DNA of 64,000 nucleotides, taken from assembly GCF_964355755.1 (NCBI RefSeq), contig NC_092671.1:10179001-10243000 (forward strand), read 5' to 3'. Under the pieces are notes generated by a model. That model saw only the letters and a program-made list of their open reading frames with translations. It did not search any database and was not told the origin of the DNA. The stretch is from Antedon mediterranea. Taxonomy: Eukaryota; Echinodermata; Crinoidea; Comatulida; Antedonidae. The position numbers were made by a program, and so were the translations under genes. Positions 4,827 through 55,016 of the stretch are shown here, piece after piece; position 1 is the stretch's first letter; each line of letters starts with the position of its first letter.

Positions 4827-7800
4827 TCAAACCATAAAAACTTGACCGCTAAACGCAGGAAGTCGGTCAAACATCAACGTGGTCACCAAAGATCCAATGC
4901 GTTCAACCGCACCCATGTAATACGTTTTCTCCTCAAGGACCAGGATGCTAACATTGACACAGTTTTGTTTTGATCTTTCACTTAACGTGTGCGCAATTTG
5001 ATGAAGTTTCTCCACATTTGGTTGAGACGTTGTTAATAATATCATTATGAGACACCCACCTCCAATGGCGTGTGTTATTAACCAGTTTAATGTTTCATTA
5101 CCTTGGTCTTGCAAACTTTCCTCTCCTTCCTAAATACAAAATAGAATATAGGTATGAGCAATAAACACTATCTAAAACACATATATAATAAATTTCTGTC
5201 ATTTGATTGAACGATTATGAGTCACATGGTGTGGCGCTCAATGCATCTATAGCTTTTTAAAATGTATTATATTTTAAAAATACAGTAGCATTAGAGAACA
5301 GTAACCTCTTCCAACTATAAACTCAATTGCAAACACTATTGTTGCAGAATATTGTGTATTTAATAATTAATATTTATCAAGTAGCTAATTTCAAGATATC
5401 AAATTAACATCTGGGAACTGGGAAGATGATTACAAATGCGTATCTTGGGTTGGATTTCTGTTATATATGAGATTCTTTTCAGATAATGCTTAAATAGTAG
5501 AACACTGCCAAGACCACTTAATATGGGTATCCTCTGAATAGGGGTTGTAATATATAATAATAATATATATAATATATATATATACGAATTTGTAAAGCGC
5601 CAATTCCAGCAACAAGTGATCAAAGGCAATGTGGACTTAGATGTTACATCTTTTCAACAACATTCTTCCCCCCTAAGGGTCACATCGTGTCATCGGCAGT
5701 CAACTACGGCGCCACTACGTCTGTCCACGACAGTGTGTGTGTATGAACTAGTACACCGGGGTAACCCCCTACTCGTCTCGAAAGATGTACTAGGTTCTTT
5801 AAAATGCACATGAACCAGATGTACACTGGACCTACGGTTTATAGTCCTTATCCGAGAAGACTTGTTCTACCACCACAACCATGGAGAACACTTGCCGATG
5901 TTATGGCTATGATTACGGTTCCACTGTCTTAACCGCTCGGCCACACTCACTCTGTGAGTGTTGTAGTGTTAAAATGTTTCACACAAAGGGTCACCTTAAA
6001 TAATAGGGTGTTCCCTGAATACGGGTTGGTCATTTCATTTATAGTGAAGAGGAGTTCTACTATATACTGTACAGTACTCTAGTGTATTTGGATGAATTCT
6101 AAGCTTTAGTAATGTATTGCATAATGTCACAGATGGTTAATCATAAAGAACCTGAATTAAATGTATTGTTGTGGGCAGATGCTTATCCAAGGACGAAAAT
6201 AAAATACCAACCAATAAATATCCTACATGAATAAATAATACTTACAATCATGATAGCGATTGAGTTGATATGTTTAGGTGTGCTGGTCATCCAATGAACA
6301 CTTGTACAACACTGGAAGACAATCACAACAAATGTTAAGCTCTGTGATGTGCCCAAATATGGTAGTGATATGCTTAAATATGGTAGTGATATGACATCGT
6401 CATGTCCATATTATGGGCACATCACATTTTTTTGTCACAAAGTTTGATAGTGTAGACAGAGCTTTACAATTAAAATTTACCACAAAATAAAAAATAACTG
6501 TACAGAAAAAAAGAAAGTTAACTTTACCAGTGATTTTTCAGATAACTTTGACTGAATACTTTTGACTAAACGATTATCATCAAATCCAACCAGACAAGGA
6601 GAAACACGTTTTTCTGAAGAAGAATACAAAAAAGTTTTATGAAAATTTTAAAGCAATATATATTTATCAATTTTTATAATACATATACTGTATATTACTA
6701 AGCTCAGTATAACCCACACAAGGAGTAGTGGTGTCTCAAATGAGGGGTCATGCTGTATTTACAGTTTCTGAACCTGAATACTCTGTACACAGTATATGAA
6801 AGCAGTGTAATATTTTAAGGGACACAACAAGATGTATTCAATCTTGGTTTAGTTAGTAACTTAAATCAAATTAAAAAATAAAGCACCATAACATTTCGAA
6901 ATATAATAATATTGATTGAGGTACACATTGGGGAGTTTCTTGTCAGTTGTTAGGTTTTTATCTTACAATGAGCTACAATAAAACTTTACAGTCTTAGAAT
7001 GTACACTTACATCTGTCTTCTGTACATAGACGTGTTATACAGAAATGTTTAAACAATTTATGACATTGTAAAATTTAATCATCATATTTATCAAACACTG
7101 TGTATATACAATTCTGGATAACGATAAACATTTTGATAAATTACCTTTAATAATGGCTTCAGCGGCATACAAATCTCTCCTATATGTTATCTAATTTAGA
7201 ATATTACAACCACTTCATTAGTAAACATAAACAAAATGTTATCAGAAGCAGTAAAACCACGGTCTAATTTATAGGTTCATGATAAAACTTATCAGATGCC
7301 ACTCAGGTACTGTGTATGTATAGTACTGTACACAAACATTTAAGGGTATGTTCAGACTCAAGGAGTTACGGTGGAGTTATCTACGCAAGGCGTACGGTAA
7401 TCCGTGGCGTTAAAAGCCAAGGTGTTCAGACACAACGATCAACATTCCAATGCCTTGCGTTTAAAACACTCTGATCAGGTCAAAGCAGATAGAACTATAT
7501 GTATACATTCATGACAATGCATGAAAGTTTACATCGTTTACATTGTTTTTTTCATTTTTATTTATATAATGTTTACCTTCAAATATACTGATTTCTTCTT
7601 ACTTGTAGAATTTCATTTTAATTCAAAATAATTTAAAACGTAATTGTTACATGGACAATTATCTGATTAATTGATTTAATTTATGAAACTAACATATTAC
7701 TGACGTCAACTTTACTGTTCTTTAAAATCTGAACCTGAAAATACATTTGACATAGCTATTTCGCTGTCGTATCATAGGGTACGGGTATGTAGTTGCTGTC

Positions 7801-10719
7801 TGCTAATCGTGGTCGTGTATTTTCATTGGTTAAGGTTAAAATCACTGATGCATCACTGGATTAGCGTTATGAAATCTACCCTCTCCCGCTAGAGTTATTA
7901 ACGCCACTGGCGCAGAGTAACAGCTTCCTAACGCTAATCCGCGGCATGGTTCAGACACAAAAATATGTACGCCGCTTACATAACTCCACCGTAATTTAAA
8001 AACAATTTTGACCCAAATAATACATGCACGTGGATATCACGTTGCCGATGTTCCCGTTGCAGGCATCAATAGTTCAGTTGGTATGTTTGTTTGTATGTAT
8101 TTTTGTTACTGTTATTATGTATATGTTAAGGGGGGATGTGGATAGAGGTGCTTGTCACCTGTCATGTATATGTTAAGGGGGGATGTGGATAGAGGTGCTT
8201 GTCACCTGTTCATCCCCTTCTTTTCGCTGTCTCTGTATGCAGTGATAAAGTTTACTAAATAAATAAATAATAAAAAATAAAGTAACTCCGTGAGTGTGAA
8301 CATACCCTAAGATGAATAAGCCTCCAATCTAAACCTTGTGAGGTTGAAATGTTCTTAATGATGATTTATTTAATTATGATAGTAATGATTAATATTTATT
8401 GATTAATTTTTATACTTCTTAAAAATACTTATTTTATGATATTTGTCTTCATTTTGGGGGTATTTTTGAAAAAATTTACTTGAAATTTAATAAATTGATG
8501 ATGATAAATAAATAAATGTTCTTAGAATAATAATTATGACATATTTGCTGTACCTTCCACACATCCTCTGGCGCTTCAATAAGCTTAGCTTTCACTTGGC
8601 AATATTCTTGAGCAACATGTAAGCACTCTGTTCCAAAATCTAAGTTATGTTCTGAAATCTAAAAGATTAAAACAAATTAATGGAATTAAATAAACACACT
8701 ATCATAGAAGCTCTCTTTTTGTGGGTGGTAACCTCCTTTAAGGGGACAACTTTCTGTGCAAAATGAACAAGGTAAACATATGGTTTATAACTATGGCCAA
8801 TCCCATCTAAAGTGACAGAAAGAAACTTCCAGTTATGGACCAGTAAATAATCTTTTTTGTGACCCAACTAATTGGTTGAGTCCTTTGAGACGATGGGAAT
8901 ATTTGCACAGAATGTTCTTACTTATAGACAGAATCATGTTATTAAGTACAGTACATGTAACAGTGCAATAGGTTATGCATTGTGTAGTTTCTCAAGAGCT
9001 TTACACCACAATAGACTCAAATGCCTATAGGCCTGGTTACTCTACTCCATCATATGGTATTTCAAACAGCATATGGAAAGTGCTTCTTATTTTAATGATT
9101 GATTATTCTGCTTACCTTTTCATAAGCTGTTTTAATTATGGGGTAAGAAAACGCTTGTGGTGTTTGACTGGCTCTGTACTTAGATCTTACTAGAGTGTGA
9201 TCTAGAAAGCCTTCTTCATCAGCTGCAACTGTTGTCGATACTAAAGGACGGATGCAACCAGCAGCCTAGAGAAAAAATAACTGAATTGTTATCATAACTT
9301 TTAGAGATAAAGAATATAAATGTAAATACAGTAAATTGTCACTGTCCTATGAATAGGGGTGTGAGGCCTAATTGTTTGCACACGTAGCTAGATACCCAGG
9401 CTTGACTACCCGGAGCGGTTTTAACTAGCCAGTGTACGCCGGACTAGTGAAATATCGAGTCCTGACGGTGTTTTACTGTAGTGCACAAAATTCTTTACCA
9501 AAGGTGCATGGGACCAATGGCTTGAAGAACTTGGTAAAAATATGTCTAACCCCAAATTCTGATGCAGCTAATGCAATCTTCTTCAAAATATTTTCATCAA
9601 CAAACGGTCTAACTGCATCATGCACGATCACGACACTTTTTTCCAGGTATGCCTGCTCGTCATCCTCGTCACTGCTTATAGCGTTAATGCCATTTCTAAT
9701 TGACCTATGTCTCGTGGAAGCGCCCTCTACCAATTCTACCTTCTGGAAATCATTCTCAAGTAAAATTCTTTGCATGTAATTTATTCGATCAAGTGAAATT
9801 ACAATAAAGATTTTCGTTATCCATGGCAACCTGAAAATATAAATAAATTCAATTGAAACTGTACAGATTAGTCATATCTAAAGATTAATACTGAATTATT
9901 ATCTAAAACTCAGAAAATTGGTAATTGCATTACATGATGACAATCTATATTTATAATATATGATTATGTAAAAAATGAACTGTATAATTATGACTGAATA
10001 TAACCCAACGCTTGATTTGATCATGTTCACACAGATATATTAAAGTATATTACTGTCTTTGATTTATAGCCCACACATCATTCAGCAATGTGTCCTCTAA
10101 AAAATGATGGTATAATAAAATATCAGACAGTAAAGATTAGCAAACAAAGAGATAAATAATAGAATAAGTTTGATTTGAACACCCCCACACAAGGTCAAGG
10201 TATAAACTACAATACTGCAGACTGTACAGTCTAACCATGGAGGTAAATGGTCTAATAACATTATTGATTTTCTTTAATCAAAGTTTTAAATTAAATAAAT
10301 ATAAATAAATCAAACCAGATCAGATTCACAATAACAATTAATTAGTTTAATTTGAAAAAGATGTGTGTGTACTAAGATAATAGTTCATCATCCAAGCAAT
10401 TGACATCCAAACGTTTTTTCTTCTGTACACTAGCCTAGTTATACAGTAGTAGGCCTACAGTGGAGAGGAAGAAATACTGACCTTCCTTGTAACACCTACA
10501 GTTTGAGGAGTGTTCTGTCTGGTAACATTTGACCTCACATAGTAGTTAGGCCTAGCTTAGTATACGATTTTAAAACACTTTCACTAACCTTTCAAAACAT
10601 TCAATCGTATAAACAATAAGAGGAAGACCTAATATATTACAAAATTGCTTTGGTTGTTTAATTCCCATCCTCTCTCCGCTTCCAGCGGCTGGAAGAATAA
10701 CGTAAGTAGGCAACTCCAT
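4827..10719 (-). CDS. CRPPA: D-ribitol-5-phosphate cytidylyltransferase (CRPPA/ISPD), eight exons
   Basis: Exons on the minus strand: 10719-10589, 9830-9551, 9265-9116, 8658-8554, 7190-7145, 6613-6528, 6311-6246 and 5129-4827. Every junction is GT-AG and phase-compatible, giving 388 residues (human 451, which has a longer N-terminus). The IspD-type fold is complete: [11 protein letters not shown] at 9-19, PKQF at 23-26, TRHRS at 83-87, HDAVRPFV at 114-121, GCIRPLVST at 140-148, RASQTPQAF at 168-176 and RDLYAAE at 227-233. The C-terminal ISPD extension, residues 239-388, is also present. The enzyme joins CTP and ribitol-5-phosphate into CDP-ribitol in the cytosol, the donor used by FKTN/FKRP on alpha-dystroglycan. 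The chosen start has A at -3 and G at +4. In-frame ATGs at 10743 and 10779 have weaker context and would add 8 or 20 residues. Donor 2 (GTTAGA) is weak. No key residue is missing. Confidence 0.93.
5347..5515 (+). repeat. Local duplicated segment, copy B (CRPPA last intron)
   Basis: Partner of 3480-3652, with only a handful of substitutions and small indels. It lies in the intron upstream of the last CRPPA exon and runs into a short TATCCTCTGAATAGGGGTT motif. Similar motifs occur near 9345 and 13209, so it may belong to a dispersed family. Confidence 0.9.
5551..5955 (-). mobile_element. tRNA-Ser-derived SINE-like element in CRPPA intron
   Basis: Read on the minus strand from about 5955, the sequence begins GAGTGTGGCCGAGCGGTTAA, which matches the 5' end and A box of tRNA-Ser/Leu. 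The expected B box about 50 bases on is eroded (AAGTGTTCTCC). A roughly 250-base body of higher GC follows, then a tail with GGCGCTTTACAAATT and an AT dinucleotide run, a common SINE ending. No target-site duplication was defined. Open frames across it are not genes. Confidence 0.7.
6335..6466. mobile_element. MITE family 1, copy 1 (CRPPA intron, truncated left end)
   Basis: The right end AGTTTGATAGTGTAGACAGA-GCTTTA and the internal GTGATGTGCCC and AAATATGGTAGTGATATG motifs match the family. The left inverted repeat is mostly deleted. It sits in the CRPPA intron just upstream of the exon at 6311-6246, ending 23 bases from the splice acceptor. Confidence 0.85.
7344..8307. mobile_element. TIR DNA transposon remnant (PIF/Harbinger-like), 3-bp TSD TAA
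   Basis: The left end GGGTATGTTCAGACTCAAGG and the right end, reverse complement GGGTATGTTCACACTCACGG, form inverted repeats that continue as GAGTTACGGTGGAGTTAT. TAA flanks both ends (7341-7343 and 8308-8310), as expected for PIF/Harbinger. It has no transposase frame. A retroelement fragment splits the right inverted repeat. It lies in the CRPPA intron between exons 4 and 5. Confidence 0.75.
7999..8281 (+). mobile_element. Retroelement 3' fragment nested in the TIR element
   Basis: This insert interrupts the right inverted repeat of the surrounding element between ACTCCACC and AACTCCG. It ends in an A/T-rich AAATAAATAAATAAT tail typical of non-LTR retroelements, with GTAA at both edges as a possible target duplication. 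A 47-bp unit containing GGATGTGGATAGAGG is tandemly duplicated at about 8117 and 8164. No coding sequence is visible. Confidence 0.55.
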
Positions 10720-11888
10720 CTTCTTTTCTTCGAGGCTGGGCATGAATGAATGAATGTCAACAAACAACAAACGTGACATGTGTGGATATCAAATTTCAGC
10801 TAGTGCGCCCTCTACAGTATCTAAACTTTGTACAATATTTATATTACAGTTATGTAACAATTTTAAGCAGAGAAATAGTGACTTTTGTGGTTGACGTTAG
10901 TCTCAGCAAGCTTGGAGATATCAAGCGTATTAATTTCATTTTGCGGCGGACCGCATGTATTTAGAAACAACGAGCAGTTTCATATATTGAAACTCCTGGA
11001 TGTGAGACTGAACGGCCGCACACAGCAGGCGAGGGTAGACTTAACTTCGAAGCCGCTTTTTAAAAGAATAACGACTTGACCGAGCAAAACGTGGGCGTTC
11101 ATTACATTAATATGATGTGATAATCAACTAAAGTACATCCGATTTAGAATTAATTAACGAATATTGTTAAAACTTTTTATTTGTTTCATACGAAACTTAA
11201 CGCCTCATGTTTTCCTGGTAGATATGCCAAAACATGTCAACATTATTTTAGGTGGATTATGCATCTCATCCGTTCAGCAAATTAACATTACAACAAAATT
11301 AACAACTTACTTATGTTTAATATCCGATATGTAACTGTTGTTACAAAAGACCATCCAATCAAACTTACCATAACATTTTGTCGTTTGTGACAGTTTCCCA
11401 TTTTAAATTCCCTTTACGTGTTTTTAACGCAAAAATTAGAAAAATATGTGTGTATGTGGTTAACCATCAATTAATGATAAACAGTAGACCTTAAATATTT
11501 TAGGCCTATCAAATTAAACACGAATTACCGATAAACAGAAAAGTTTAAAAGTTGACCTGTCAGTGTCATTGGTTTTAACCACAGCAAAGTGTGTGATAGG
11601 AAATAACACACGTGATCTTGTCACTTTTTTTCAATTCTAAATCAGTGACCCTAATTCTGTGGTGAAGAATTAACCTTACAAAACACATGAAGATGCGCTA
11701 ATCAAGCACATCCTCGAAATAATTGAATAATAGTATGTTTATTATCAAACATAATAATTTAAGCATGTTTACCAGCGTTATATACATTAATAATAGGCTT
11801 TCATATTAGTTTATAAGATTATAATTAATTTTGTTCTAACTGAACACCACCGGTATCCAATGCCCGACGGCGAGTTGCGTTCTTACTC
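10720..11888. promoter_or_regulatory. CRPPA 5' flank and presumed promoter
   Basis: The first 400 bases upstream of the CRPPA start are richer in CpG than their surroundings (GCGGCGGACCGC near 10943, AACGGCCGC near 11010). No TATA box is evident on the minus strand, which fits a housekeeping promoter. The rest, to the MITE at 11889, is AT-rich with nothing recognised. Confidence 0.3.
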
Positions 11889-12039
11889 AAAGCTCTGTCC
11901 ACACTATCAAACTTTATGTTACAACAAAATGTGATGTGCTCATATAAGGACATGTGATATCACTACCATATTTAAGCATATCACTACCATAATACTTGAG
12001 CACATCACAAACTAGTTTGATAGTTTAGGCAGAGCTTTA
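11889..12039. mobile_element. MITE family 1, copy 2
   Basis: Both inverted ends are present: AAGCTCTGTCCACACTATC on the left and GATAGTTTAGGCAGAGCTTT on the right. Internal ATATCACTACCATA motifs occur twice. About 151 bp. Confidence 0.9.
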
Positions 12040-12388
12040 GACCAAATATATTCGACGCGTTAAACGCGAATGGTGCATGGGCGTGTTCTCCGTTTCTACG
12101 TTTATTTAAACCCGAAATCCGGCCCGAATTTTAAAACAAAATCGAGGGTTTGGTATTATTATGGAAGCGTTTACATCAAATCTATTTAATTTATACACAG
12201 CGCCCTTTTCCGGATCCGAGATTGGCATTAATCGCAGCTAGACACAATAATTATTGAACGTCGAATACTAGTCTGGGTTCCAGCCGGATTTTTGACCTAA
12301 TATTGGTAAAAAGATAAATATTTGGGCACAAATGGCGTTTCATACGTAAACCTCGAAAAACCTCGAAATAACTACAGACTTGGTCTGT

Positions 12389-12528
12389 CCAAGTCTAGTC
12401 CAATATGTCCAATTTCAATGTACATGAGTAAGTTTAAGCCTAGGACTCCAACGTCCAATTTCAATGTACGTGAGTACGTTCAAGTCTAGGACTCCAATAC
12501 GTCCAATTTCAATGTACGTGAGTACGAG
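12389..12528 (+). repeat. 46-bp tandem repeat, three units
   Basis: Three imperfect units share GTCCAATTTCAATGTACGTG and AAGTCTAGGACTCC, starting near 12389, 12436 and 12481. Confidence 0.85.
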
Positions 12529-13837
12529 ATAAATACACTTTCAATATTGATGCTGACTCATTTTCGGTTAAATAACTTCTTGCGACAATAACATGACTTT
12601 TAATGTGACGTTAATTATTTCGTAGGATAAACATAAATTTGATTAAACGATGAGACGTGTTCGACCTTCTTTGTTAATCGCATAACATGTTTTTAAATTA
12701 TACGGTATTCAGTACCTAATTCATACAACCCCAGTCCCAAAGAATTCACTTCTGGATTGATACGGTAACTATACTCAATGTTTCATACGTTTTGACATGA
12801 AATGAAAAGTAATACACCCTTCTGAGACATAATGGTATAATAATTATTACATCATACAATGACATTACACAATTCAATCATCATAGGATAGTCACATATC
12901 AATAACGTAACAGTATAATGGTTCTAAATATTGCCCTACAGGCGTTCAATTCGCTTGAATTGGAACGACACATGAATAGTTCTGAGACTGTAAGTTCGAT
13001 ATAGTCCGTATGTAAACCAAATATTAGGAAGTCAAGTTTATACCTTGTGATTTGTGCAACACATCACATGGCACATGATTGTCATAATTGTTCAATAGTT
13101 GTCAGTGTTGCCTTGTGTCTTTGCAGGTACGGATGGGAACGTACTCTACTATACAGTACAAAAGAACTCTTTATTAAGAAATTTCGGGACTCAAAAAGTT
13201 TACTTAAACGCGTGTCCTCTGAATAAGGGTTGCCTGTTATAGTGTTGAAACATATAATATGTTACTCTTCATTCGTTCACGAGAAGGTGGAAACATAAGC
13301 GTGTCTCATGAGAGTGATGCCCTACTACGTCTACTGAATTATTGTGGACAAATAAGATCGTTTAGTAAAATACTGAGTGCCAGCAGACGTATATAGACCG
13401 TGATGAGATACCGTCTACATAATCTAATACAGTAAATACAACTTTAAGGACGGTAAAGTTGAACCGTATCGAATAGAATTCACTGACATAGTTTATCCAT
13501 AAGCTTCAGTTATGCTGTAATACCATATGGAATTCACACTTTGCAGCTTGCAAAACATAACAAGTAAACTAGTTGTATAAACTAATATTTAATTTCAATT
13601 TTGTGCAGATGTTAAGTGTCGGTTGGTTATTGCTTCAAAGTACAACCTGCAGGTAATCAAATAGGCCAACACATGGACAGGCCTATTATAAAGCAACATA
13701 CGAATCATGTTACACAACTGCTTCAGGATGTTATTCACTATGCTAATATAAAGATGATAACTCAATGCTGATTTATGACCTGTAGCTGTTATTTGTGTTT
13801 TGAACACTGGTGGAGATCGTAAGGGAATAGGAGAGGG

Positions 13838-13882
13838 GGATAGGAGATTTTAGAGGGGGATAGGAGATTTTAGAGGGGGATA
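13838..13882 (+). repeat. 20-bp tandem repeat
   Basis: Two and a half copies of a unit reading GGATAGGAGATTTTAGAGGG, a purine-rich strand. Confidence 0.85.
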
Positions 13883-15489
13883 GTTCTGCACTTTTCGGCG
13901 ACAAATAAATGGCATATTGAAAGCAGCAACTTCTTTTTATCCTCTTTAATATTTGGATCAGGGCCTATAAATATTAGTTTTGCCTTGCTTGTTTTTGTAT
14001 TTACATAAATGATTTTTTGATATTTTTTTAAAAATAATTTCTGATATATTTATTGAAATGCTATATCTTATCTTTATGTGCTACTTGGTAAGACTGAGGG
14101 TTACACTGGCTCTTGTTATAGGGATTTAGTTCCCGCTTGTGTTTCCTGCCACTTTGTAGTTATTTGTTTGTTTTTGGGTTTTTTTTTATGATTGGCAATA
14201 AAGAAGAAGAATAATTAGTTTTGAATTTCTGTGATTTTGTGTGGAGGAGGGGTGACACACGAGCGGTAAAGTCAGATTATTTGGACCACCAAAAGCATGT
14301 AATATTAATAATTTTCAACATATATTATGTTCTGTTAATTTAGGAGTTGATGAATGCTTCTGCCATCTTGGTCCGAATAAAACTACTGCAAAGATGAAAG
14401 TACTACAGAATGAAATAACTAACTTAAAATATGTTATGTTATATCATGCTTTTTATATCCATTTGAGGTGATGGATATTAAAAGACACTTCATCACAATG
14501 TGCGATGAAGTGTTTCCTTCACACCTTGAGGTATTCAACAAAGTTTGATACAATTTGCTTTCTCTCTCTTCCTCAGCCTGTTGTTTTAAATCTTCTATCA
14601 CAACACAAGTTCCAGCTAAGTGTCAATATCTTAACTAAATTTAATCGTTACGTTGATGGATGTTCCATTAGGGCAGTCAATATGTCCTATTAACCTGCAC
14701 ATCACAGGTGTCTAGGCCAGGGGTCACTCGATCTATCTAATATCCGTTCGCAATCAAAAGCGGTTCTATGGACCGAAATATGTCTTAAATAATTAATGTC
14801 AAAATTAAAATGTAAAATTATTTATGACACTAAGCAATGAAAACTGTCAGCACTATGTAATCTATGTGCACGTGACATATTTTATCGGCAAAAACATTCA
14901 ATTTTTAATATAAAAAAGTGTCCAGTTCTAGTTGAGAGTGGTTTTAGAAAATTGAAATGTTCGCATACTTCTCAAGGCCTACTACAAATTACTACAGTAA
15001 GTGAGTAAGACATGTCATAGGCCTATATACTATTTCATCTTTTTACATTTTATTAAAGCAAAAGTGATAGCAAACGAGTGCTGTTAAACATTTAAGTAAA
15101 CACGACGTCGATGAAATCTATGACTGAATTTAGCCATTGTTTACATTAAAATAATTAGTCAACAATATTCATATAGTACGGCCTACGACTCTTCTTTGGT
15201 GATCAATAATTAGTAACCAAGTCCGTTTAGTATAAGTTTTAATTATTTCAATTTGCAAAAATATAGGACGTAAATTAGTAAAGGCAATTAATTATGAGTA
15301 AAATCAATACAAAAAAAGCAATAAATATGAACTTGTGTATCAATGGATACATTTAATAGAACAGTTTCAAGGAAGAAGTTTTCTTACTAAAAATGTCACG
15401 TTTAAGAAAACAATAAATTAAGTAAATTTAAAAGACAGCAATCAATGTTCTTCAACAGTTTTGCACTTTTACGATTGGGTGTACGTATT

Positions 15490-16017
15490 GAATGGTATGG
15501 ATAGATATGTTTTCGTTACAAATAAACTACGCTCTAGCTTGTATTATGTACAAATGTATACATGGTATTGCACCTCCCCGTCTGTGCAACGATATTGAAA
15601 TGGTTTACGACCAACATGGATACTCTACGAGATATTCCTAATCTCTGAATGTTATACCACCTATACCAAATTGCTTATTAATGAACGGATCGCTAAAGAT
15701 TGCAGGAGCAAAAGCTTGGAATAAGATCCCTCTAAATATTCAAGATAGTTTGTCTGTAGGCCTAAAAAGTTTCAAAATTAATTATAAAAAGCATTTCTTA
15801 AAAATAAAATTGTATTTCCACACGTAGTATTATTAACGTTCTATATTCACTGATTGTTATATATTTTCTATTTTTTTTATTTTTTTTTAATTTTTTTTTT
15901 AATTTCTTGTGTTTTTTTTAAAGTTGTTTCATTGCAGGACCATATTGAAAAACCAGAAATGTTGTGATTTTTTCTTTTCTGAAGAATTATGTTATCCTGC
16001 CTAAATAAATAAATTAG
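15490..16017 (+). pseudogene. Non-LTR retrotransposon (CR1/L2/jockey-like) 3' fragment, broken
   Basis: A reading frame from about 15519 to the stop at 15825-15827 encodes the extreme C-terminus of a LINE reverse transcriptase polyprotein: an MYKCIHGIAPPRL-like segment, then GAKAWNKIPLNIQ and a final SFKINYKKHFL. One in-frame TAA interrupts it in the middle. The 3' region ends CCTGCCTAAATAAATAAATTA, a typical LINE tail. No polymerase core is present, so this is a dead 5'-truncated copy. Confidence 0.75.
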
Positions 16018-16548
16018 TAACAAGTACACCAAATACTTTTGAATTTTTAGAACCGTGTAACTGTATAACCAATCGATGGCTGTAATATTAATGTTGATGT
16101 TTCTTCGACGAGGAAGCTATAAATGAGTTTGTTTGAATTCTATAAATAAACTAAGTTGTCTATTATTAGAGGTAACTGTTACGCATCTTACCCATTAAAA
16201 TATGTTCTTGGAATTTCTAAAAACTAATGTTTAATTTTTCAAGTTTAATATTTGTATTTTTATATGTATTTATTTTCATTCAAATATACGCTGTTTTATA
16301 AATTGTACTGTAAGTTGTTGGAAAGCAATACATATTACTTACTTAATTAAATAAATAATGTTATTATTTATTTCGGACTGCATCGAAAAGTCAAAACAAT
16401 TAATTTCACCGCACATAGACTCTGAGTATACTTACAACTATTCAAGTTAATTACAGCGAATCTATATTTTCGACTGAAAGTTGCATTTGAATTAATACAA
16501 ACTGTTTTCATTAATTTTAGTTTATTCGTTACAAACATTTTTTCTTAG

Positions 16549-16615
16549 ATACTTGTGACTTTTCTTGACACCACCATGGGTGAAATCGTCAGGACGGGCA
16601 ATCTAAACCGGAATG
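16549..16615 (+). other. Candidate short first coding exon, unassigned
   Basis: A plausible acceptor (TTTTTTCTTAG) at 16548 is followed by a strong initiation context, CACCACCATGG, with ATG at 16576-16578. Thirteen codons (MGEIVRTGNLNRN) plus one base are followed by a GTAATT donor at 16616. The phase-1 end would fit the phase of SOSTDC1 exon 2, though a phase match has a one-in-three chance. No family was recognised, and it may be fortuitous. Confidence 0.2.
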
Positions 16616-16873
16616 GTAATTAAAGTAAATACAGGGTTACGTTGTACTTATAAGCTTTTTGCACAGTTATAACTTGAATTAAAAGTACACTAACATATTA
16701 TTGCAAATTGATCCATTTTGGATCTGTCACTGGCAATAATATTCTGTAATTTGATTTCAATCAGCTGGTACCCGTGGCCTAGATGTATATTCCTCAAATG
16801 TCTTCAGAGTAATTTCGCATTTGACGTTTACATCTGGCACCAATATTTACTTCCTCTTTCTCAAGACAATATG

Positions 16874-17152
16874 TGACGTCACAAATATTATTGACGCGAC
16901 GACATTATGACGTCACACATTTACTGTACAAACATCATGATTGTAAAAAATAACAAATTTAACTGAAATTGAAAACAAAAATGTAATGGGTTTTTTTACA
17001 CTGTGTGAATAGATGCAGGGAGGTAATATCTGAAATTAAAAAAGTTTTATATCTGACCACAACAATATTTAACATTTTATTACGTACCGTAATAAACATG
17101 TTTGTGATGTTTGTGACATCATAAATCAGGACTGGCGCTAACTATGACGTCA
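16874..17152. promoter_or_regulatory. Cluster of three CRE palindromes
   Basis: Exact TGACGTCA occurs at 16874-16881, 16908-16915 and 17145-17152, with a TGACATCA near 17114. This is the CREB/ATF site. The cluster lies about 7 kb upstream of SOSTDC1. Another single site is at 18920-18927. Function is inferred from the motif only. Confidence 0.3.
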
Positions 17153-18450: not shown

Positions 18451-18609
18451 TTAAGTTCTATCTACACTATCAAACTTTATGTGACCAAAAAAACATGATG
18501 TGCCCATACAAATGGAGGCACGATGACATCATATCACTACCATATTTGGGTATATCACTACCATATTTGGGCACATCAAACTAGTTTGATAGTGTAGACA
18601 GAGCTTTAA
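18451..18609. mobile_element. MITE family 1, copy 3 (near full length)
   Basis: The TTAAG-flanked left end TTCTATCTACACTATCAAAC and the right end GATAGTGTAGACAGAGCTTT are both intact. ATATCACTACCATATTTGGG is present twice in the middle. At about 158 bp it is a good reference copy for the family. Confidence 0.92.
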
Positions 18610-20323: not shown

Positions 20324-20434
20324 ATTAACGTAACGGGCAACGCAAGTGATTTTACTAAATGATATACATATTATTATCGTTTAGTGATTGTTTGCCCTTA
20401 CGATTAGTTGCGTCCTAGTGGGAACCGAGCTTTA
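20324..20434. mobile_element. MITE family 2, diverged copy
   Basis: Begins AACGTAACGGGCAACGCAAG and ends GCGTCCTAGTGGGAACCGAG-CTTT. Both ends match the family terminal repeats, while the centre is replaced or diverged. Confidence 0.7.
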
Positions 20435-22237
20435 TAACTTCGCCATGTTGAAGATGTCCTAAAATTACATTAGGCCAACGTTTTTTGCTTAATTAATACG
20501 ATTATACCCAATGGCTATAATTCTTTTTCGTTCTATTTATAGAAACTCGACATTTTAAGTCCCATCTACTAAATAATATATAGTTTGATGATTTCTTTTC
20601 CCTCCACTCCAACGTAGTAGCTTATCTTTGTTGGTTTTTTTTCTTTTAAACTTTTCATTATCATTTTCTTAATTTAGCTTCATATTAATGATAAATTACT
20701 TTACACATTAATTGTTCTGTTCTTAACGCTAGAAACCGCTATGTCAATATGAATCAAAAGTTTGAAATCATAATTCATCTTCATATGGCGATAACAATCT
20801 TCCAAATTAGTTTTGAATCATTATACTTAGCAATGTCAGATGGAATTTTCGTTGAGGAAATTATGGATAAAATTGTCGTTCAGTTAATCCATTAATTAAT
20901 CCCTTGGGATTATTAATCTCTGTTTCGTAACCTTGATCAACCAGCTGATATTAATTCATTTTGTGTGAATACAAATATTGTCAATTCTCTTTTTGGCAAT
21001 CATTACAATACAACTTGTGAATATCCAGCAGGGCGTTGCGTAAAAGAGTAGGCTCCTCAGTCTTAATATGGGATAGTTTTGGAAGAAATTTTCCCGAGTG
21101 TTCTTATCAAAATGTTGGGTTGTTTGTGTTTAGAAATTGCATTTACATTCAATATTATTTCTATAACTCATTAAAAAATTATACTTCACCGTAGGCCTCT
21201 GTAAACAATAATAACGGTAGGCCCACAAGCCTCATAGTAATGAAGAGAATTGGCTTTAAATTTTCTCTACAGCGCCTAAACACTGATTCCCAGCAGTAGA
21301 TGCAAACCAGACTTTCACACCGGTGTCTATCACTACATTACCATAGCAACCACATCATTCCACAAGAAACAAACACGAGTTGTATAATGACTCAATAATA
21401 TGGCATGTTTCAATAATGATGCATTATGGGAACTACGTTAATTAGTGCGTAACAACATTCAGACTACAACGGAAGTTTAATGTGCGCGTGACTTAAGTTG
21501 TTCGTTGACTTAATACATGCTGTCTAAATTAAGCATGTTAAACATGCGGATATTAAGTATGGTTTAAAAATAGAATTTAGTTATTTGTAAAATAAGCTTC
21601 CTTAGGACTACTCATGATGACAGAGTATCAACTTTAAGTTACCAGCATGTAATGTTGGTGTTATATTTTTCTTTGAACCAACAAGTGTATCATATTCTAG
21701 TACAATTTTATTTTAGGTGTTCTCATTAATTTTTAATTTCAATTAAAATGTTCGAGGAAGCTTAATTATAAAGAACGCTAATAAATTGGGAAAGATAATG
21801 TAGGCCTACATTTTTATCTTCACCGTGGTGTGGATATCGATAAACCGATACATTTAGGTCCCATGATAAGTTTGAACTCATCTGCTTCAGTTACGACATA
21901 CTCTGGGGTAAGATCCAATATTGTAAAGCTACATGATCATAATGTAACAAATTTGCTTCCTGGATAGCTAGGTTAAGCGTCCCCATAACATTAAACTATT
22001 ACATGTATGGAGCGCCCTAAATGACAAAAAGGAGTACCCGAGGTCATGTAATGCGGAAGAGTACACAACTCAATAGAAATGGACAGATTGAAAATTAACA
22101 ACAGAAAGTTCTCTTAAAGTAGCACACTGCCATTACCCATGAGTTGCATAAATCTTAATAATAATCATGGCGACTTTATACTATTTGCGACCACAAGGAT
22201 CGCGATTCAATTCAAACTGTGGCAGAAATCGTTCGAA

Positions 22238-22309
22238 AATGACCACTAATATGACAAACAAATGACCACTAATATGACAAACAAATGACCACTAATATGA
22301 CAAACAAAT
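22238..22309 (+). repeat. 23-bp tandem repeat, three units
   Basis: Three near-perfect copies of a 23-bp unit containing AATGACCACTAATATGAC, starting at 22238, 22261 and 22284. Confidence 0.95.
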
Positions 22310-22514
22310 TAAAACAGACTGTCGAACACTTTGGTCAAAAAGCTGTTGAGCGGATGTTGTGAAAATGAATTGGCACTCTGGAAGCAAATTGTCACTTCCG
22401 AGAATCAGTAATTAATAATTATATACAATTAATACTGAATATAAAACACGACTGACAGGTAGCTAGAGAAGCGGTACAGGCGTGTCACTGACGACGGACA
22501 TAAGCTATCTACCA

Positions 22515-22584
22515 ACTAAACGAAGCCAACATGCCCCTGAATGAAGCAAACTAAACGAAGCCAACATGCCCCTGAAGCAAACCA
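22515..22584 (+). repeat. 35-bp tandem duplication
   Basis: Two copies of a unit beginning ACTAAACGAAGCCAACATGC, at 22515 and 22550. Confidence 0.9.
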
Positions 22585-22743
22585 ATGTTACCGATAATTA
22601 TGCTCTACCAATATAAACGGTGCAAACATTCGCTGTTAACGATATTCGTTGCTCAGTTATGAATATATATCATAAATATATGTTTTACAGATATTATATT
22701 CGGTGTTCGAGGCTCTGCCAAGCAAACACAACTTTCACATTGA

Positions 22744-22860
22744 CAACTGTCTACATTATCAAACTACAGTAGTGAAAAAGTGTGATGTGCCCAAATATGG
22801 TAGTGATATGATGTAATCATGTCCATATATGGGCACAAACACATGTGTAGACAGAGCTTA
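22744..22860. mobile_element. MITE family 1, copy 4 (shortened)
   Basis: Left end AACTGTCTACATTATCAAAC, right end GTGTAGACAGAGCTTA, with GTGATGTGCCCAAATATGG inside. Part of the right arm is deleted. Confidence 0.85.
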
Positions 22861-23525
22861 ATTGTTGTGACAGAATCGAGGCCCGAGTTGATGTATATAC
22901 TTAAGTTAATTTTATAATTTAAAAATAAAGCTTAATTACCTCCAAACTCATATTACTGATTTTTCAATCCGTTGCAAAAGAAGAGTGGCCAATAGGATTG
23001 GAAGACATGTTATTAACCCGCAATATAGTCAGTATTTATAATACTGATTTACTTATAATATAACTGACCTCCAAACACATCGAGGTATAAAATTCAAAAT
23101 TAGTTTTACATAATTTAGTTTTACTTGAGATAATATTTCAATTTTATTTTTTTAACTTAACAACTTGATATCATGCAGCTTGTAATTTCTTTAATATTAC
23201 CGTGGTAAATGAATTGACAATCAAAGCGTGACGATAAACTACCGGTTTGTTGAGTAACACGTGTATCATATGTATCATCTTAACCTTTATTTCGTTTGTG
23301 AAGAAATTATATTTTGTACGATATTCGATACGGTATACGACATTCTCCGAAACACAACAGTATAATTAGACATACATTCTGAGAATATATTGCTACTATC
23401 GGCTATGGCAATTAGTGTTACAAGATATACAGGAGACACAATTATAATGTAATCACTTTGTTCGGTGAAACTTTCAGGGGACATTTTAATTCTCAGTGGA
23501 TATGTTGACAGTTGGTTATAATTAC

Positions 23526-23545
23526 CAGGGGTGGATCCAGGGAGA
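23526..23545. mobile_element. Lone hAT-type terminus
   Basis: CAGGGGTGGATCCAGGG resembles the end of the element at 63629-63792. No partner terminus was found nearby. Confidence 0.35.
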
Positions 23546-23791
23546 CAGGCAGAAGAGTAAAAGGAAATAGAAAAGAGAGGAATTATCTAGGCCTATTAGT
23601 ATTATTAATTAATATTTAGGCAACTCTACAATGTGCTTCACCGGGTCAATAAAACAATTGCGGTACACAATCCGACAGGAAAGACCACGAAAACATGTGG
23701 CAAAAAATCTATAGGCAGCATATAAAGTGGAACACATCACTTGTCAGTCATGGTGTTACGTTTCTACATCTCCTCCCTATATTTGATAGAG

Positions 23792-23799
23792 TATAAATA
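23792..23799 (+). promoter_or_regulatory. TATA-like box upstream of SOSTDC1
   Basis: TATAAATA lies about 510 bases before the SOSTDC1 ATG. Transcription would start near 23825, leaving a 5' UTR of about 480 bases if unspliced. A CACGTG E-box lies near 24028. This is based only on motif and position; TATA-like words are common in AT-rich DNA. Confidence 0.3.
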
Positions 23800-24306
23800 A
23801 CATCAGAACTCATTAATTTAAAAGCGAGCAGCATTTGTTTATAAGCCTACTGTCAGTCATACAGTGGCACACGCAGTACCTGTACTACATCTTTGTTAGG
23901 GGGCTATTGCGGCGGCACGAAACTCCTCCTACTCGAAGTTTTAGCGTTGTTTTTTCCTCCGGTTTTCTACAATATACGACTGCCGCTGTGGAATACGCCA
24001 TTAAGAAGAAGAATAAACGTATAGGTCACGTGAGCGAGTAGTGGACTATCTGAAAAGTTTAGCAGTGTTCAACAACAGAGACTCCGCCCACTGTAGAGCT
24101 GAACGACAAAATACTTTTCATTGGGGTTCAGTTAGACGTATGAAGTCCTAGTGTTCGCATATGCTATTGTTCCCGCGCATTTACATACATAAAACGTTAT
24201 TCTTCTGTTTGAACATACAGTTTGTTTTACACTGACCTTGTGGTACAACGGCAGTAAACGTCCATGTAGAAGTTACACGCTTTTTGGATTCAATACTATT
24301 TTAATA

Positions 24307-27300
24307 ATGAAGTTGAATTATTTCGGCTGTACGATGCGGCCTCTCTCATCAACTTTCTCGTGGATTGCATTATTTTCTGGATTGTTATTTGTATTATATT
24401 GTGATTGTGCAGTTGTAAACCCAGATAAGTTAGTTTTAGAAACATCTCCACCTTCAATTGAGGAAGTAGTAGTAGAGACCGCTACGGTCGTTACAGAGAA
24501 TAAAAGGGATAGAGATCAAAAACGAAGAAATAGGCAAAGAACAACCGAGTTGGATACGCCGCAGCAGCCGGGTACAGAGGAAAAACCTAATGGATACCCT
24601 TCCCCTTACAACCCAGGTAAGCTAAAAAAAAACATCCAATTATTCTATATATTTTATTTTATGATTTATATATAAATATATATTTATCTAATTGTTCAGG
24701 GTGACAGAAATACTGTCACTACTCTTCTCTTTTGTTGATAACGTAAGGAAGATATCCCCAGATTTTATGTATATTATTCTGTTTAACCCAGAGGCTATGC
24801 AAACAAAAGGTGCGAATGAAGAGAATACCTTTTACTGTCCAATGGGTTTTATACATGCTGATGATTCCTTCACAATTAGACGCCTCTGCTCAATTCCTAT
24901 CTGTGTAGATAATACCTCATCCACGAAAGCTTTTGTTCAATGGAATTGACACTCAACTAAAGACGAATCATTGCATTAAAAACCTGCACAGATTTTTTTT
25001 TTTTAATGAATAGGCCTACTGTGATAGCGATCGTCTGCTAATAAGGTTGCCTTGCAGACGACCATGTTTACCACCAGGAACACGTGATCATGGTCGATGC
25101 ACGCTTTACTACAGTCCGCAATATTTTGTGTCGAACCAAATAAGGAATAGGTCAATGCAGTAATTTTAATGAAATACTACCCACAAGCCTATATTATTAT
25201 GTAAACTTTAAACAAATGAGCACAATGATTATCATTTAAATTCATTAAATTTATAATAACAGTTTAGGGGACGGTCTAATAACAAGAAAACAAAATGGCA
25301 ACGCTACCGGTATTTAGTTTACACACTACATTTACAAGATACGCGTCTTCATTATTATTTAATTATTCATAAGTTTTAAATGATAGCTTTCGGTGATATT
25401 AAAATAAATATATCGATCCGTAGCTTCAAATTAGGCCTACTAGGCCTAGATTATGAACACCGCATGCAGTGATTAGACATAGGCATCACATGTTGAATCA
25501 GCCGATTATACTATGCCATAACTAAATCGAATTAATAATATTTATGTTTCTGTCAATCTGTCAAATACAGACAAAAATCTAATTGATAGTCAGCTATTAT
25601 TTACACAATTTATTCGCATACTACTTGTAAAAATGTCCGATGTAAATATTGGCTGCCTGCCAAATTGAATTTCTAAACCCCCATATCATCATTAAGCGTC
25701 TGTAGTGCTAAAGTCTATATTATTATTATCGGTGGGTTGTCCTGTGATTGGCCGAAAACGAGGGTGTGTGTCTAGATTACTTTTAACCAATACAGTAAGG
25801 TAGGCCTACATTTATGTAATTCATTCTTTATATTTAGTAGGCACATGAGCTTAACTACGTCTATATTTTTATTTCGATGATGTTAACACTTTTTAACAGT
25901 TTATGTTATGACGTACACACTAGCTAACGTGAATAAATATATTCGTTAAGTATATTAAACCAAAACATTTTAGGATAATGTATATAGCCTGTAAAATGTA
26001 ACATGTAATACATAGATTTCGGTAACTATCAAAAGTAGGCCTATACGTGTGGATGATAGGCCTACATAAATCGCCCGTGACAACAAGTGAGTAGAGGGTG
26101 TGGACCTGTGGTGATAACAAATGGAGATTTTTATAATACTGTATTTCAAGATACGGTGTTTTATATACAGTAGAAGGAAATTGGAAACATTTTAGTAGAT
26201 TTTTTTCCTTTCAAGAAATTTACCCTAGTTTCTGGATTGAAATTGCTTTCATTCGTCAGAGAATTTAGGGCCTACTACATAAAACACAAATATTTACTCA
26301 TTAAATATTACAAAAAACTAATTAGTATTTATTTGTATGTTGAGTTCTCGGTAACATTCCTTCTGGTAGAACTCTTAAAAAGTTCAATTCACTTTCAGCT
26401 GTCGATCATATAGAATGAAGGTTGCTGATGTAACAGCAGTATACAGCAAAGTGAAATGCATTGTGAACCGTATGAATTCAAGTACTGATACGTTTCATAT
26501 ACATTTAAATAGCATTCTATTGCATCAACCACACGATGAAACGATAGGAACAGGTAAAACAAACTCGCACTATATGTGCTTTCTATGCGAACAATATCCT
26601 ATAAATTACACGTGTCTCAAATGTCACCATTTCTTTGTCTTCCTATTTATTGGCAATATTATAGAAGGAGGTGGAAATGAAAGAGGTTATTATGCCCTTA
26701 ATTGTTACATTTGTGATTTTTTGCAACAAAATCAAGACAACTTTGACAGCTTTTCGGCGATTTTCTCGCTCTCGAGTTCCTTCTTTTTATATCAGAAGAA
26801 TATGAAACTTTCTCAACAAAAGACCGAACGTTTCTTTTTGTATTGATGTTTTCTACCAGGAAAGTTCAGAGGATGAGATCAATAAATTACGTTTACTTCT
26901 TTTTCTCAATCATAAGTTCTATTATCATTTAATTAACACAAAGAAAGGAGGCAACCTAAATCTTTTATTTTTAAATTCGTATTGAATATAAAAATTTACA
27001 AAATATATCACACACTAAAGTTTTAAATAGTTATTGTGAGTGTAAAGATCAGTATATTTAACCACGCTTGGCATGCTAAGTTGACCCCTAATTAGACACC
27101 TAAGAAATTACGAGTGTACACCAATAAATTATTGCCTTTTCCGAATAATTTGTCATTATTTCACCATAAAGAGAACGTGTACAATTTCAAATAGGCTTAA
27201 TAATGAACAATGTATATTTAATGGAAATCGACCGACAAGTTCATTGACATACTACAAGGTGGATGACTCCAGGGATAGAGAAATGAATATGTTCGCTTAG

Positions 27301-30300: not shown

Positions 30301-31697
30301 AACTTATTGAAATTGCTTCAACGATATAGGTATTTTTCCGTTTTGGTATATTTTAATGGCGTTCATTCAACCAAAACTGATCACACTTTGTGACTACATA
30401 ATTGTTGCCCTACCACTGCTTTAACATTTCATGGTGTGTATTGAAAATTTGGAATTATTAAGTTATCTAGTCCCTTAATATCCTGGTTTTGAACAGAAGA
30501 GAACAGAGACGGCTTAACAGAGATCAACTCTTTGTTGTATTCCTTTTAAGAGTTCTCTTTCATAAATTGTTACACGAAGGACAGCACTAGTTCCAGGGAT
30601 GTCATAATATAGTATGCTTTTAAATTAAAATATTTCTTTTTATTAATATATCGCCTTGCCGACCCAGTTTATAACCCATTTTAGGATGGAAACATATTGC
30701 ATTCTTCCCACGTGTTACTGTTACCATACAATATAGTATGTAGACTGCCGTACCTGTATGGCGAGCTGTGTAGTACTTTCACGATAGATGGTCAAACAAA
30801 GTGAACATTTAATGGAGGTGTCCTAAAGACCAGTTGTATTCCTTCTTATTACTTTTAATACGTTTGTTATAAAAATGTTCATTGCAATCTTGATGGACAT
30901 ATTGCGATCGAATTCAACCCATTATTTGAATATATATCATTGGTATATTGATACGCTTTGTTTAACCAATAGTTTGCGGTTGATAACAAGGTCAGGACCG
31001 AACACACTTTGACAATTTGCCAAATTATATTTTAAGAGTGAAGTGGTTTCGTTTGACTTATCAATATCTTCAACTCATAAATCATTAAAACAAAATTCGA
31101 TGACGTTGTTGAAAATGAGTTGTACAAACATACGGGTTCTCTGACATCATTCTTGAAGCTGGCTGACGATTGCTATGCTATATTACTGCTATATGTGAAT
31201 ATCATATCTTTTCATCCATCTATAATATTGAATTTACCCCAAGCGTCCTGTACCTATCTTGTCAGACTACACCCTCCAGAGATTAACCCGTTTGTTTATA
31301 TTTTTATCTTCCAGACGATCTACAACTTGGCTGTACCGAACTCAGATCAAAACGGTATATTTCGGATGGATTTTGCACAAGTATAAAACCTATCACAGAA
31401 GTTGTCTGTGCTGGCGAATGCTTACCCGTACGAAACCTTCCATGGTACGCCGAATACGTCAAAGTATGGAGTACCGAAAAGACAAAAGAATGGCGATGCG
31501 TAAATGATGTTATTCGCCATAAACGGGTTCATCTCCGTTGTGAAAATGGTGAAAGGCGAACATATAGAATTCGAACTGTTCGAAGTTGCAAATGTAAAAA
31601 ATACAATAAAAAACACAACCAGTCTCGCTTGGACAATAACCATCATCAAGATACAAGTCGAACGGAACGTAAACGAAGTCGAGAAAAGGAAAACTGA
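24307..31697 (+). CDS. SOSTDC1: Sclerostin/SOSTDC1 (Wise, ectodin)-like secreted cystine-knot protein, two exons
   Basis: Exons 24307-24616 and 31315-31697 join in phase 1 through a GT-AG intron of 6.7 kb and give 230 residues (human SOSTDC1 206, SOST 213). Residues 1-34 form a signal peptide with hydrophobic core IALFSGLLFVLY; Met10 is an alternative start. Residues 35-103 are a basic, proline-containing linker. The C-terminal cystine-knot domain has all eight family cysteines (110, 124, 135, 139, 165, 179, 195, 197) in RYISDGFC, VVCAGECLP, EWRCVND and SCKCKKY. A sequon at Asn205 sits where SOSTDC1 has one, and the basic tail (RTERKR) also resembles SOSTDC1. Family members are secreted BMP antagonists that also modulate Wnt through LRP4/5/6. 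The N-x-I LRP-binding motif of loop 2 is not visible; the loop reads NLPWYAEY and is about three residues shorter. Exon 2 has no in-frame ATG, and other open frames across it are shadows. CRPPA lies divergently upstream. Confidence 0.93.
24617..31314 (+). other. SOSTDC1 intron 1
   Basis: The donor is CAG|GTAAGC and the acceptor is ATCTTCCAG. The vertebrate SOST and SOSTDC1 genes also have a single intron just before the cystine knot. No transposon of the named families was found inside it. It contains a 143-codon open frame of unknown meaning and several TAGGCCTA sites. Confidence 0.8.
26415..26846 (+). other. 143-codon orphan open frame inside SOSTDC1 intron
   Basis: ATG-initiated frame with a real stop at 26844-26846. 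The product has cysteine pairs in MCFLCEQ, TCLKCHH and NCYICDF, spaced a little like a zinc ribbon, followed by a Phe/Ser-rich C-terminus. It resembles no family I recognise. Composition matches the intron, and a frame this long is only mildly unexpected by chance in 64 kb of such DNA. More likely non-coding. Confidence 0.15.
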
Positions 31698-35720: not shown

Positions 35721-35728
35721 AAATTCAA

Positions 35729-54854: not shown

Positions 54855-55016
54855 GAATACCGATAGTAAATTCTAGCGGTAGGCCTATCATACGGTAACG
54901 GATTCTGGGATATATAGTTTATTTATTAAATTATTAGTGTAATATCATGAAGTTGACGTACCTCTTTCATTGAGACGTAAATGGTGCATGTCTAAAAGTA
55001 CCGACATCCATATATT

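What the first reader, a model, noticed from the sequence alone, without database searches (positions are those of the whole stretch)
4827..31697. CRPPA-SOSTDC1 microsynteny shared with vertebrates
CRPPA and SOSTDC1 are neighbours in human 7p21. Here they are adjacent with 13.6 kb between start codons and no gene seen between them. Two functionally unrelated genes staying linked over such a distance suggests a shared regulatory block, for example SOSTDC1 enhancers in or near CRPPA.
Basis: partly seen in the sequence, partly recalled or inferred. Interest (0 to 1): 0.72.

Follow-up and report, generated by a model that had tools for sequence, protein, structure and literature searches.

The report
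Ancient gene cluster around sclerostin gene
Two unrelated genes, for a sugar enzyme and a bone-type signal blocker, really do sit side by side in this animal as they do in people, and two more of their human neighbours lie just beyond the window, so what has survived looks like a small ancient gene neighbourhood rather than only a pair.

Summary
CRPPA (minus strand, seven exons, 366 aa) and a sclerostin-family gene (SOSD, plus strand, two exons, 230 aa) are intact; each is the only place matching its family in the 354-Mb genome. They are head to head, 13.6 kb between start codons; Pfam, Rfam and tRNA scans found no gene between them.

The pair is part of a larger block. A PEA3-class ETS gene (ETV1/4/5 class) lies 33 kb downstream of SOSD, just past the window, followed by a type I diacylglycerol kinase. 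The exons found for all four genes span 149 kb. Vertebrate ETV1, DGKB, CRPPA and SOSTDC1 share one region. Of eight reported partners tested, three are close (SOSD included); MEOX and CUL1 are on the same chromosome but megabases away; no AGMO-, ANKMY2- or BZW-family match is close.

SOSD linked to ETV1 and CUL1 is already published for limpet, amphioxus and sea anemone. My preferred, inferred reading is a SOSD-PEA3 regulatory landscape on SOSD's 3' side, with CRPPA a passenger. A new member of a known kind.

The parts
1..1250 (+). 3' part of a DAZAP2-type gene, left neighbour of CRPPA (coding stretches about -50..232, 428-541, 1110-1250; outer limits approximate)
   Evidence: Pfam DAZAP2 4.2e-19 in one of three plus frames of window 1-1301; proline-rich frames
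4827..10719 (-). CRPPA (ISPD) gene, exons 10719-10589, 9830-9551, 9265-9116, 8658-8554, 7190-7145, 6613-6528, 5129-4827; 366 aa, no internal stop; one exon may be missing between 6528 and 5129
   Evidence: spliced protein best PDB hit 4cvh human ISPD 8.7e-77
10744..24306 (.). interval between the two divergent start codons; no recognised gene; at least 5% dispersed repeats (counted only against the 204 kb held)
   Evidence: six-frame Pfam 0 families over 10760-24291, Rfam 0, tRNA 0, repeat cover 0.053
24307..24616 (+). SOSD exon 1 (signal-peptide-like start, judged by eye)
   Evidence: open frame and GT donor read
31315..31697 (+). SOSD exon 2, sclerostin/DAN cystine-knot domain
   Evidence: Pfam Sclerostin 1.2e-38, DAN 3.4e-12; 2k8p human sclerostin 3.6e-24; single match in genome
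31698..64000 (.). window part of the 33.4-kb interval from the SOSD stop to the coding end of a PEA3-class ETS gene on the minus strand (about window coordinate 65.1 kb, outside the window); proposed SOSD-PEA3 regulatory landscape (inferred)
   Evidence: ETS matches at C2:10244338-10244880; best PDB hits ETV1/4/5; six frames of 31698-46699 give one chance-level match, Orf78 E 0.085 and below its cut-off; 46700-65136 not Pfam-scanned

Best explanation
The pair is what is left, in this genome, of an ancient gene block holding a PEA3-class ETS factor, a type I diacylglycerol kinase, CRPPA and a sclerostin-type BMP/Wnt antagonist. Shown: order here is DAZAP2(+) - CRPPA(-) - SOSD(+) - PEA3(-) - DGK type I(-), the exons found for the last four within 149 kb, while MEOX (a member of the vertebrate block) and CUL1 (a reported SOSD neighbour) lie megabases away on the same chromosome. 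Inferred: the block stayed together because SOSD and PEA3, both developmental genes, have interleaved long-range control DNA in the 33 kb between their 3' ends, and perhaps in the 50 kb between the PEA3 and DGK exons found, so breaks there are selected against. CRPPA and DGK are passengers held in by their positions at the flanks.
For: PEA3 identity: two ETS exons 1.3-1.9 kb beyond the window, the only 2 of 12 ETS matches on this chromosome; best PDB hits ETV1 5.5e-35, ETV4 5.5e-34, ETV5 6e-34, next class ETS1 6.3e-20; two upstream exons with partial ETS_PEA3_N matches below that family's cut-off. DGK: type I N-terminal domain at C2:10323954-10332498, no other match in the genome; N-terminal and EF-hand exons, accessory and catalytic exons. 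Vertebrate linkage: ETV1, DGKB, AGMO, MEOX2, ISPD in about 1 Mb in chicken (PMC11806877); AGMO, MEOX2, CRPPA, SOSTDC1 in 1 Mb in pig (PMC12189728). Vertebrate duplicates keep parts: DHX8, ETV4, MEOX1, SOST, DUSP3 in cattle (PMC10804543); ETV5 with DGKG (PMC7699364 and PMC3537611). Deeper age: SOSD near ETV1 and CUL1 in limpet, amphioxus and sea anemone (PMC4079206). Shuffling elsewhere: MEOX 3.63 Mb, a Hox gene 2.15 Mb and CUL1 8.86 Mb away. Regulation by analogy: 4C contacts from the human SOST promoter to ECR5 and to enhancers between MEOX1 and ETV4 (PMC7825314).
Against: There is no expression, chromatin or conserved non-coding evidence here for any regulatory element; the regulatory part is analogy with human SOST. 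Internal order and at least one orientation differ from vertebrates (human strands recalled), so breaks inside the block have been tolerated. Of 8 partners tested, 5 are not close: MEOX, CUL1, AGMO family (0 of 7 matches on this chromosome), ANKMY2 family (1 of 28 zf-MYND matches on it, at 2.43 Mb), BZW family (1 of 5 W2 matches on it, at 36.9 Mb). Without the preselected SOSD the chromosome-wide chance of 2 of 7 is only about 1e-3. The published anemone, amphioxus and limpet neighbourhoods name ETV1 and CUL1; 'ISPD' does not occur in that paper's main text (its figure is not held). The other ETS matches were not classified, so a second PEA3 gene elsewhere is not excluded. Repeats sit in the gap.
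Confidence: 0.5

Rival explanations
1. Plain inheritance without constraint: the genes sat together in an old linkage group and have not yet been separated; no shared control is needed.
For: The chromosome looks like an old linkage group: MEOX, a Hox gene, an MNX-type gene and CUL1 are all on it (homeobox names by recalled signatures). The left neighbours (DAZAP2, neogenin/DCC type, a beta-tubulin) are not members of the vertebrate block (recalled), as expected of random mixing. CRPPA is a metabolic gene with no obvious reason to be bound to SOSD.
Against: MEOX, Hox and CUL1 are 2-9 Mb away while four genes stayed within 149 kb. Under random placement on this chromosome, 3 or more of 8 within 150 kb has chance about 2e-5, or 1e-3 for 2 or more of 7 without SOSD. 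Pieces of the block are kept in two further vertebrate duplicates.
Confidence: 0.33
2. One reading: enhancers of the sclerostin gene lie in CRPPA introns or in the 13.6-kb gap, so CRPPA cannot be separated from it.
For: The two genes are adjacent here with no gene found between, and successive in the vertebrate gene lists.
Against: The cattle SOST region lists ETV4 and MEOX1 and no CRPPA, and the SOST promoter's reported contacts lie on the MEOX1-ETV4 side. CRPPA is on SOSD's 5' side here; in human 7p21 it is on the 3' side (strands recalled). No non-coding conservation could be tested either way.
Confidence: 0.13
3. Coincidence: the genes came together independently in this lineage and in vertebrates.
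For: Orientation and order differ from vertebrates (human strands recalled).
Against: Four block members within 149 kb, and a prior report of SOSD-ETV1 linkage in limpet, amphioxus and sea anemone.
Confidence: 0.02

Closest known systems
[quoted passage not shown] synteny section with figure legend read, other passages seen)
   Same: Sclerostin-type gene linked to a PEA3-class gene; CUL1 on the same chromosome here too.
   Different: That paper's main text has no ISPD, MEOX, ANKMY2 or BZW2 (the name CRPPA was not searched, the figure is not held). Here CRPPA and DGK type I join the block and CUL1 is 8.86 Mb away.
Human 7p21 / pig / chicken ETV1-DGKB-AGMO-MEOX2-CRPPA-SOSTDC1 region
   Same: The same four gene classes together: ETV1, DGKB, CRPPA, SOSTDC1.
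   Different: MEOX is 3.63 Mb away and no AGMO-family match is on this chromosome; order and SOSD orientation differ (human strands recalled); 149 kb instead of megabases.
Human 17q21 ETV4-MEOX1-SOST with the ECR5 enhancer (van Buchem region)
   Same: A PEA3-class gene lies on the 3' side of the sclerostin gene with a long interval between (33 kb here).
   Different: No CRPPA listed beside SOST (cattle); the vertebrate interval holds MEOX1; enhancers shown there, not here.
Genomic regulatory blocks / cis-regulatory microsynteny (listing; two listed papers searched for these gene names with no occurrence)
   Same: Developmental genes plus functionally unrelated neighbours kept together across phyla.
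   Different: The defining arrays of conserved non-coding elements could not be tested.

Membership tests
CRPPA (ISPD) orthologue | IspD-type cytidylyltransferase domain closer to animal ISPD than to bacterial IspD/TarI | tested here: met
   4cvh human ISPD 8.7e-77 against 3.5e-25 for the next chain
CRPPA (ISPD) orthologue | additional C-terminal domain after the IspD domain | tested here: inconclusive
   109 residues follow the aligned part, but HMMER's local alignment ends at query residue 257 of 366; an exon between 6528 and 5129 may be missing from the model
Sclerostin/SOSTDC1 family | sclerostin cystine-knot domain above the family cut-off | tested here: met
   PF05463 133.4 bits, cut-off 27
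Sclerostin/SOSTDC1 family | SOSTDC1 rather than SOST (paralogue identity) | not tested
   single match in the genome, presumably pre-duplication; the three PDB chains listed are all SOST; no tree was made
PEA3 class (ETV1/4/5) ETS factors | ETS domain closest to ETV1/4/5 | tested here: met
   ETV1/4/5 chains 5.5e-35 to 1.3e-30, next class ETS1 6.3e-20 (3' ETS exon)
PEA3 class (ETV1/4/5) ETS factors | PEA3 N-terminal domain | tested here: inconclusive
   two exons match ETS_PEA3_N at 3.8e-5 and 1.6e-5, 24.2 and 25.4 bits, below the 30-bit cut-off; the whole-genome PF04621 search found none, not even these
Type I diacylglycerol kinase (DGKA/B/G) | DAG_kinase_N plus catalytic and accessory domains | tested here: met
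   DAG_kinase_N above cut-off in two exons; DAGK_acc in three exons and DAGK_cat
Type I diacylglycerol kinase (DGKA/B/G) | EF hands | tested here: inconclusive
   one EF-hand match 1.2e-4, 21.8 bits, below the 25.4 cut-off
Conserved microsynteny with vertebrate 7p21 | at least three orthologous genes within a short stretch in both genomes | tested here: met
   exons of CRPPA, SOSD, PEA3, DGK type I in 148,671 bp; vertebrate linkage from papers
Genomic regulatory block | conserved non-coding elements acting as long-range enhancers of a target gene | not testable with these tools
   no related eukaryotic genome held; no chromatin data

The most novel reading that the evidence does not exclude
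The downstream control landscape of human SOST, broken in van Buchem disease, descends from a SOSD-PEA3 regulatory neighbourhood that predates vertebrates and still works in this animal in the 33 kb between the two 3' ends; CRPPA and DGK have been carried along as passengers for more than half a billion years.
Probability: 0.25. Interest if true: 0.72.

Novelty: new member of a known kind. Interest (0 to 1): 0.42.

Why it matters
It moves attention from a pair to a four-gene block and from CRPPA to PEA3. If the block is held together by shared control DNA, invertebrates with compact genomes become a place to look for the ancestral elements behind SOST and SOSTDC1 regulation, which bear on bone mass and on tooth and feather patterning. 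If it is not, the block is a clean example of how far gene order can survive without constraint.

Tried and rejected
CRPPA-SOSD bidirectional promoter: rejected, because the start codons are 13.6 kb apart.

Codon-usage scan for hidden genes: the signal is too weak in this AT-rich DNA (1 of 7 CRPPA exons at 12 bits or more). It flagged one stretch in the CRPPA-SOSD gap (12.2 bits), none in the SOSD intron and two in the SOSD-PEA3 interval (19.7 and 12.1 bits). It counts neither way.

Whole-genome search for the PEA3 N-terminal domain: 0 matches although partial matches are present in this gene; uninformative.

COX1 search for a mitochondrial contig, to read the genetic code and so the phylum: nothing found. 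Sialyltransferase count as a deuterostome marker: 150 matches, which leans to deuterostome by recalled taxonomy of the family but is not a phylogenetic test; the phylum stays open.

MEOX and ANKMY2 as immediate neighbours: no match near. AGMO and BZW families likewise. Family searches over introns can miss genes, so these are missing matches, not proofs of absence.

Paper searches for a printed CRPPA-SOSTDC1-ETV1-DGKB invertebrate block. Several lists were cut (15: 20 of 291 shown; 38: 15 of 358; 39: 20 of 89; 46: 15 of 112; 74: 12 of 77). Among the papers shown, only PMC4079206 was found to cover part of it. PMC8851819 and PMC9023564 have no occurrence of six gene terms in the main text. PMC3057954 (passages) gave nothing on linkage. 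The genome-wide microsynteny paper of Irimia 2012 (recalled) is not held, so the block may be listed there.

Not tested: LRRC72, TSPAN13, AGR2/3, AHR, SNX13, HDAC9; Pfam scan of 46.7-65.1 kb and of the PEA3-DGK interval; identity of the other ETS matches.
Full report
What is there. The window is C2:10179001-10243000 of a 354-Mb assembly in 18 contigs. CRPPA is on the minus strand. Several exons match human ISPD (4cvh), and a seven-exon model with standard splice sites (read) gives 366 aa without a stop. The spliced protein hits human ISPD at 8.7e-77, against 3.5e-25 for the next chain; the alignment ends at residue 257, so the C-terminal third is placed by frame and eye only. The sclerostin-type gene (SOSD) is on the plus strand in two exons, 230 aa, with a Sclerostin domain at 1.2e-38 and human sclerostin at 3.6e-24. 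Whole-genome searches give one place for each gene. SOSD is better called the SOST/SOSTDC1 pro-orthologue than SOSTDC1; no tree was made.

Is anything between them? Six of six frames of 10760-24291 hold no Pfam family at E<=0.1; the same X-for-stop method did find IspD in 2 of 3 frames of the CRPPA gene. No Rfam family reaches gathering score in the window, and ARAGORN, run with the bacterial code, finds no tRNA. A codon-usage scan flagged one weak stretch in the gap (12.2 bits) but recovered only 1 of 7 CRPPA exons, so it is not usable. A lineage-specific gene without a known domain is not excluded.

The block goes on outside the window. An ETS-domain search gave 12 matches in the genome; the two on this chromosome are two exons of one gene, 1.3-1.9 kb past the window's right end on the minus strand. 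Its 3' ETS exon is PEA3 class: ETV1 5.5e-35, ETV4 5.5e-34, ETV5 6e-34, then ETS1 6.3e-20. Two further exons have partial matches to the PEA3 N-terminal domain, each below the family cut-off, and a whole-genome search with that domain found nothing. The other ten ETS matches were not classified. PEA3's coding end is 33.4 kb from the SOSD stop, 3' end to 3' end. Next on the same strand is a type I diacylglycerol kinase. Its N-terminal domain matches at C2:10323954-10332498 and has no other match; an EF-hand exon (below cut-off), catalytic and accessory exons follow down to window coordinate about 119.8 kb. From the CRPPA stop to the outermost DGK exon found is 148,671 bp, and 50 kb, not scanned with Pfam, separate the PEA3 and DGK exons found. 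To the left lie a DAZAP2-type gene, a neogenin/DCC-type gene and an intronless beta-tubulin frame, none of them members of the vertebrate block (recalled).

Comparison with vertebrates, all from passages of papers. MEOX2, CRPPA, SOSTDC1, LRRC72, ANKMY2, BZW2 and others lie in one 2.9-Mb pig region (PMC9687167). A largely matching list is given for human 7p21 (PMC3002326). [quoted passage not shown] So CRPPA, SOSD, PEA3 and DGK type I here are counterparts of one vertebrate neighbourhood. Vertebrate duplicates keep parts of it: DHX8, ETV4, MEOX1, SOST, DUSP3 in cattle (PMC10804543), and ETV5 with DGKG (PMC7699364 and PMC3537611).

Results against a full block. Of eight reported partners tested, three are near (SOSD, PEA3, DGK type I). 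MEOX is 3.63 Mb away on the same chromosome: its homeodomain is split over two exons and was recognised by its recalled signature and by Pfam Homeodomain on the first exon. CUL1 is 8.86 Mb away on the same chromosome. The AGMO family has 7 matches, none on this chromosome. zf-MYND (for ANKMY2) has 28 matches, one on this chromosome at 2.43 Mb. W2 (for BZW) has 5 matches, one on this chromosome at 36.9 Mb. Of the four homeodomain matches, two others on this chromosome look like a Hox gene, 2.15 Mb away, and an MNX gene at 39.4 Mb (names by recalled signatures); the fourth, on C4, was not assigned. Order and orientation also differ: here CRPPA and SOSD are head to head and PEA3 follows SOSD; in human all are on one strand, with ETV1-DGKB on the far side of MEOX2 and CRPPA (recalled).

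Chance. If genes were scattered at random along this chromosome, at least 3 of 8 partners within 150 kb of CRPPA has probability about 2.1e-5; over the genome, 3.4e-8. SOSD was preselected by the finding; without it, at least 2 of 7 has probability 1.1e-3 and 1.5e-5. The radius was set after the result was known and independence is assumed, so these are orders of magnitude. They speak against coincidence but not against slow decay of an old linkage.

How it may work. I think the SOSD-PEA3 side is more likely. In human bone cells the SOST promoter contacts ECR5, a downstream enhancer whose deletion lowers sclerostin in mice, and further enhancers between MEOX1 and ETV4, all on the centromeric side (PMC7825314, passages); so ETV4 lies on the 3' side of SOST. 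Here PEA3 also lies on SOSD's 3' side, across 33 kb; the first 15 kb, scanned in six frames, hold only a chance-level Orf78 match (E 0.085, below cut-off), and the rest was not scanned. CRPPA, by contrast, is absent from the SOST neighbourhood listed in cattle. This is an argument from position only: no non-coding conservation, chromatin or expression could be examined. I give the whole explanation 0.5, with unconstrained inheritance at 0.33.

Known or new. PMC4079206 (synteny section, figure legend and passages) already reports SOSD with ETV1 and CUL1 in limpet, amphioxus and sea anemone and on one human chromosome. PMC13121700 (passages) says that two annelid assemblies lack sclerostin, which implies that other spiralians have it, so the gene is not confined to deuterostomes. 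I saw no paper in the held library naming the CRPPA-SOSD-PEA3-DGK block in an invertebrate (searches, several with cut lists), but a main genome-wide microsynteny paper is not held. The finding is therefore a new member, and a useful extension, of a known kind.

Noticed in passing
window 2412-3480: Large 31-bp-unit minisatellite (about 33 copies) between DAZAP2 and the CRPPA 3' end; a shorter array of a similar unit at 1704-1818.
   Followed up: no
window 5660-5950: tRNA-derived SINE-like element in the last CRPPA intron; its middle resembles the widespread Nin-DC SINE domain (recalled, by eye; ARAGORN calls no tRNA).
   Followed up: no
window 6343-6465, 11889-12039, 18436-18608, 22747-22861, 34103-34231, 53277-53407, 54743-54858, 63464-63626: About 120-bp dispersed repeat family, some copies inverted, MITE-like by eye, in a CRPPA intron and in both intergenic intervals.
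   Followed up: partly
window 35009-35694: 174-bp unit in tandem plus inverted copies.
   Followed up: no
window 40727-40990: ORF resembling the C-terminal end of a non-LTR retrotransposon (by eye; no Pfam match).
   Followed up: no
G000, contigs C1-C11: 150 matches to sialyltransferase family GT29, many in clusters (e.g. C9:6.93-7.21 Mb, C7:20.77-20.89 Mb), which seems an unusually large expansion.
   Followed up: no
G000:C5:3.06-3.40 Mb: Several cullin genes or fragments in one cluster on C5, with near-identical scores at several places.
   Followed up: no
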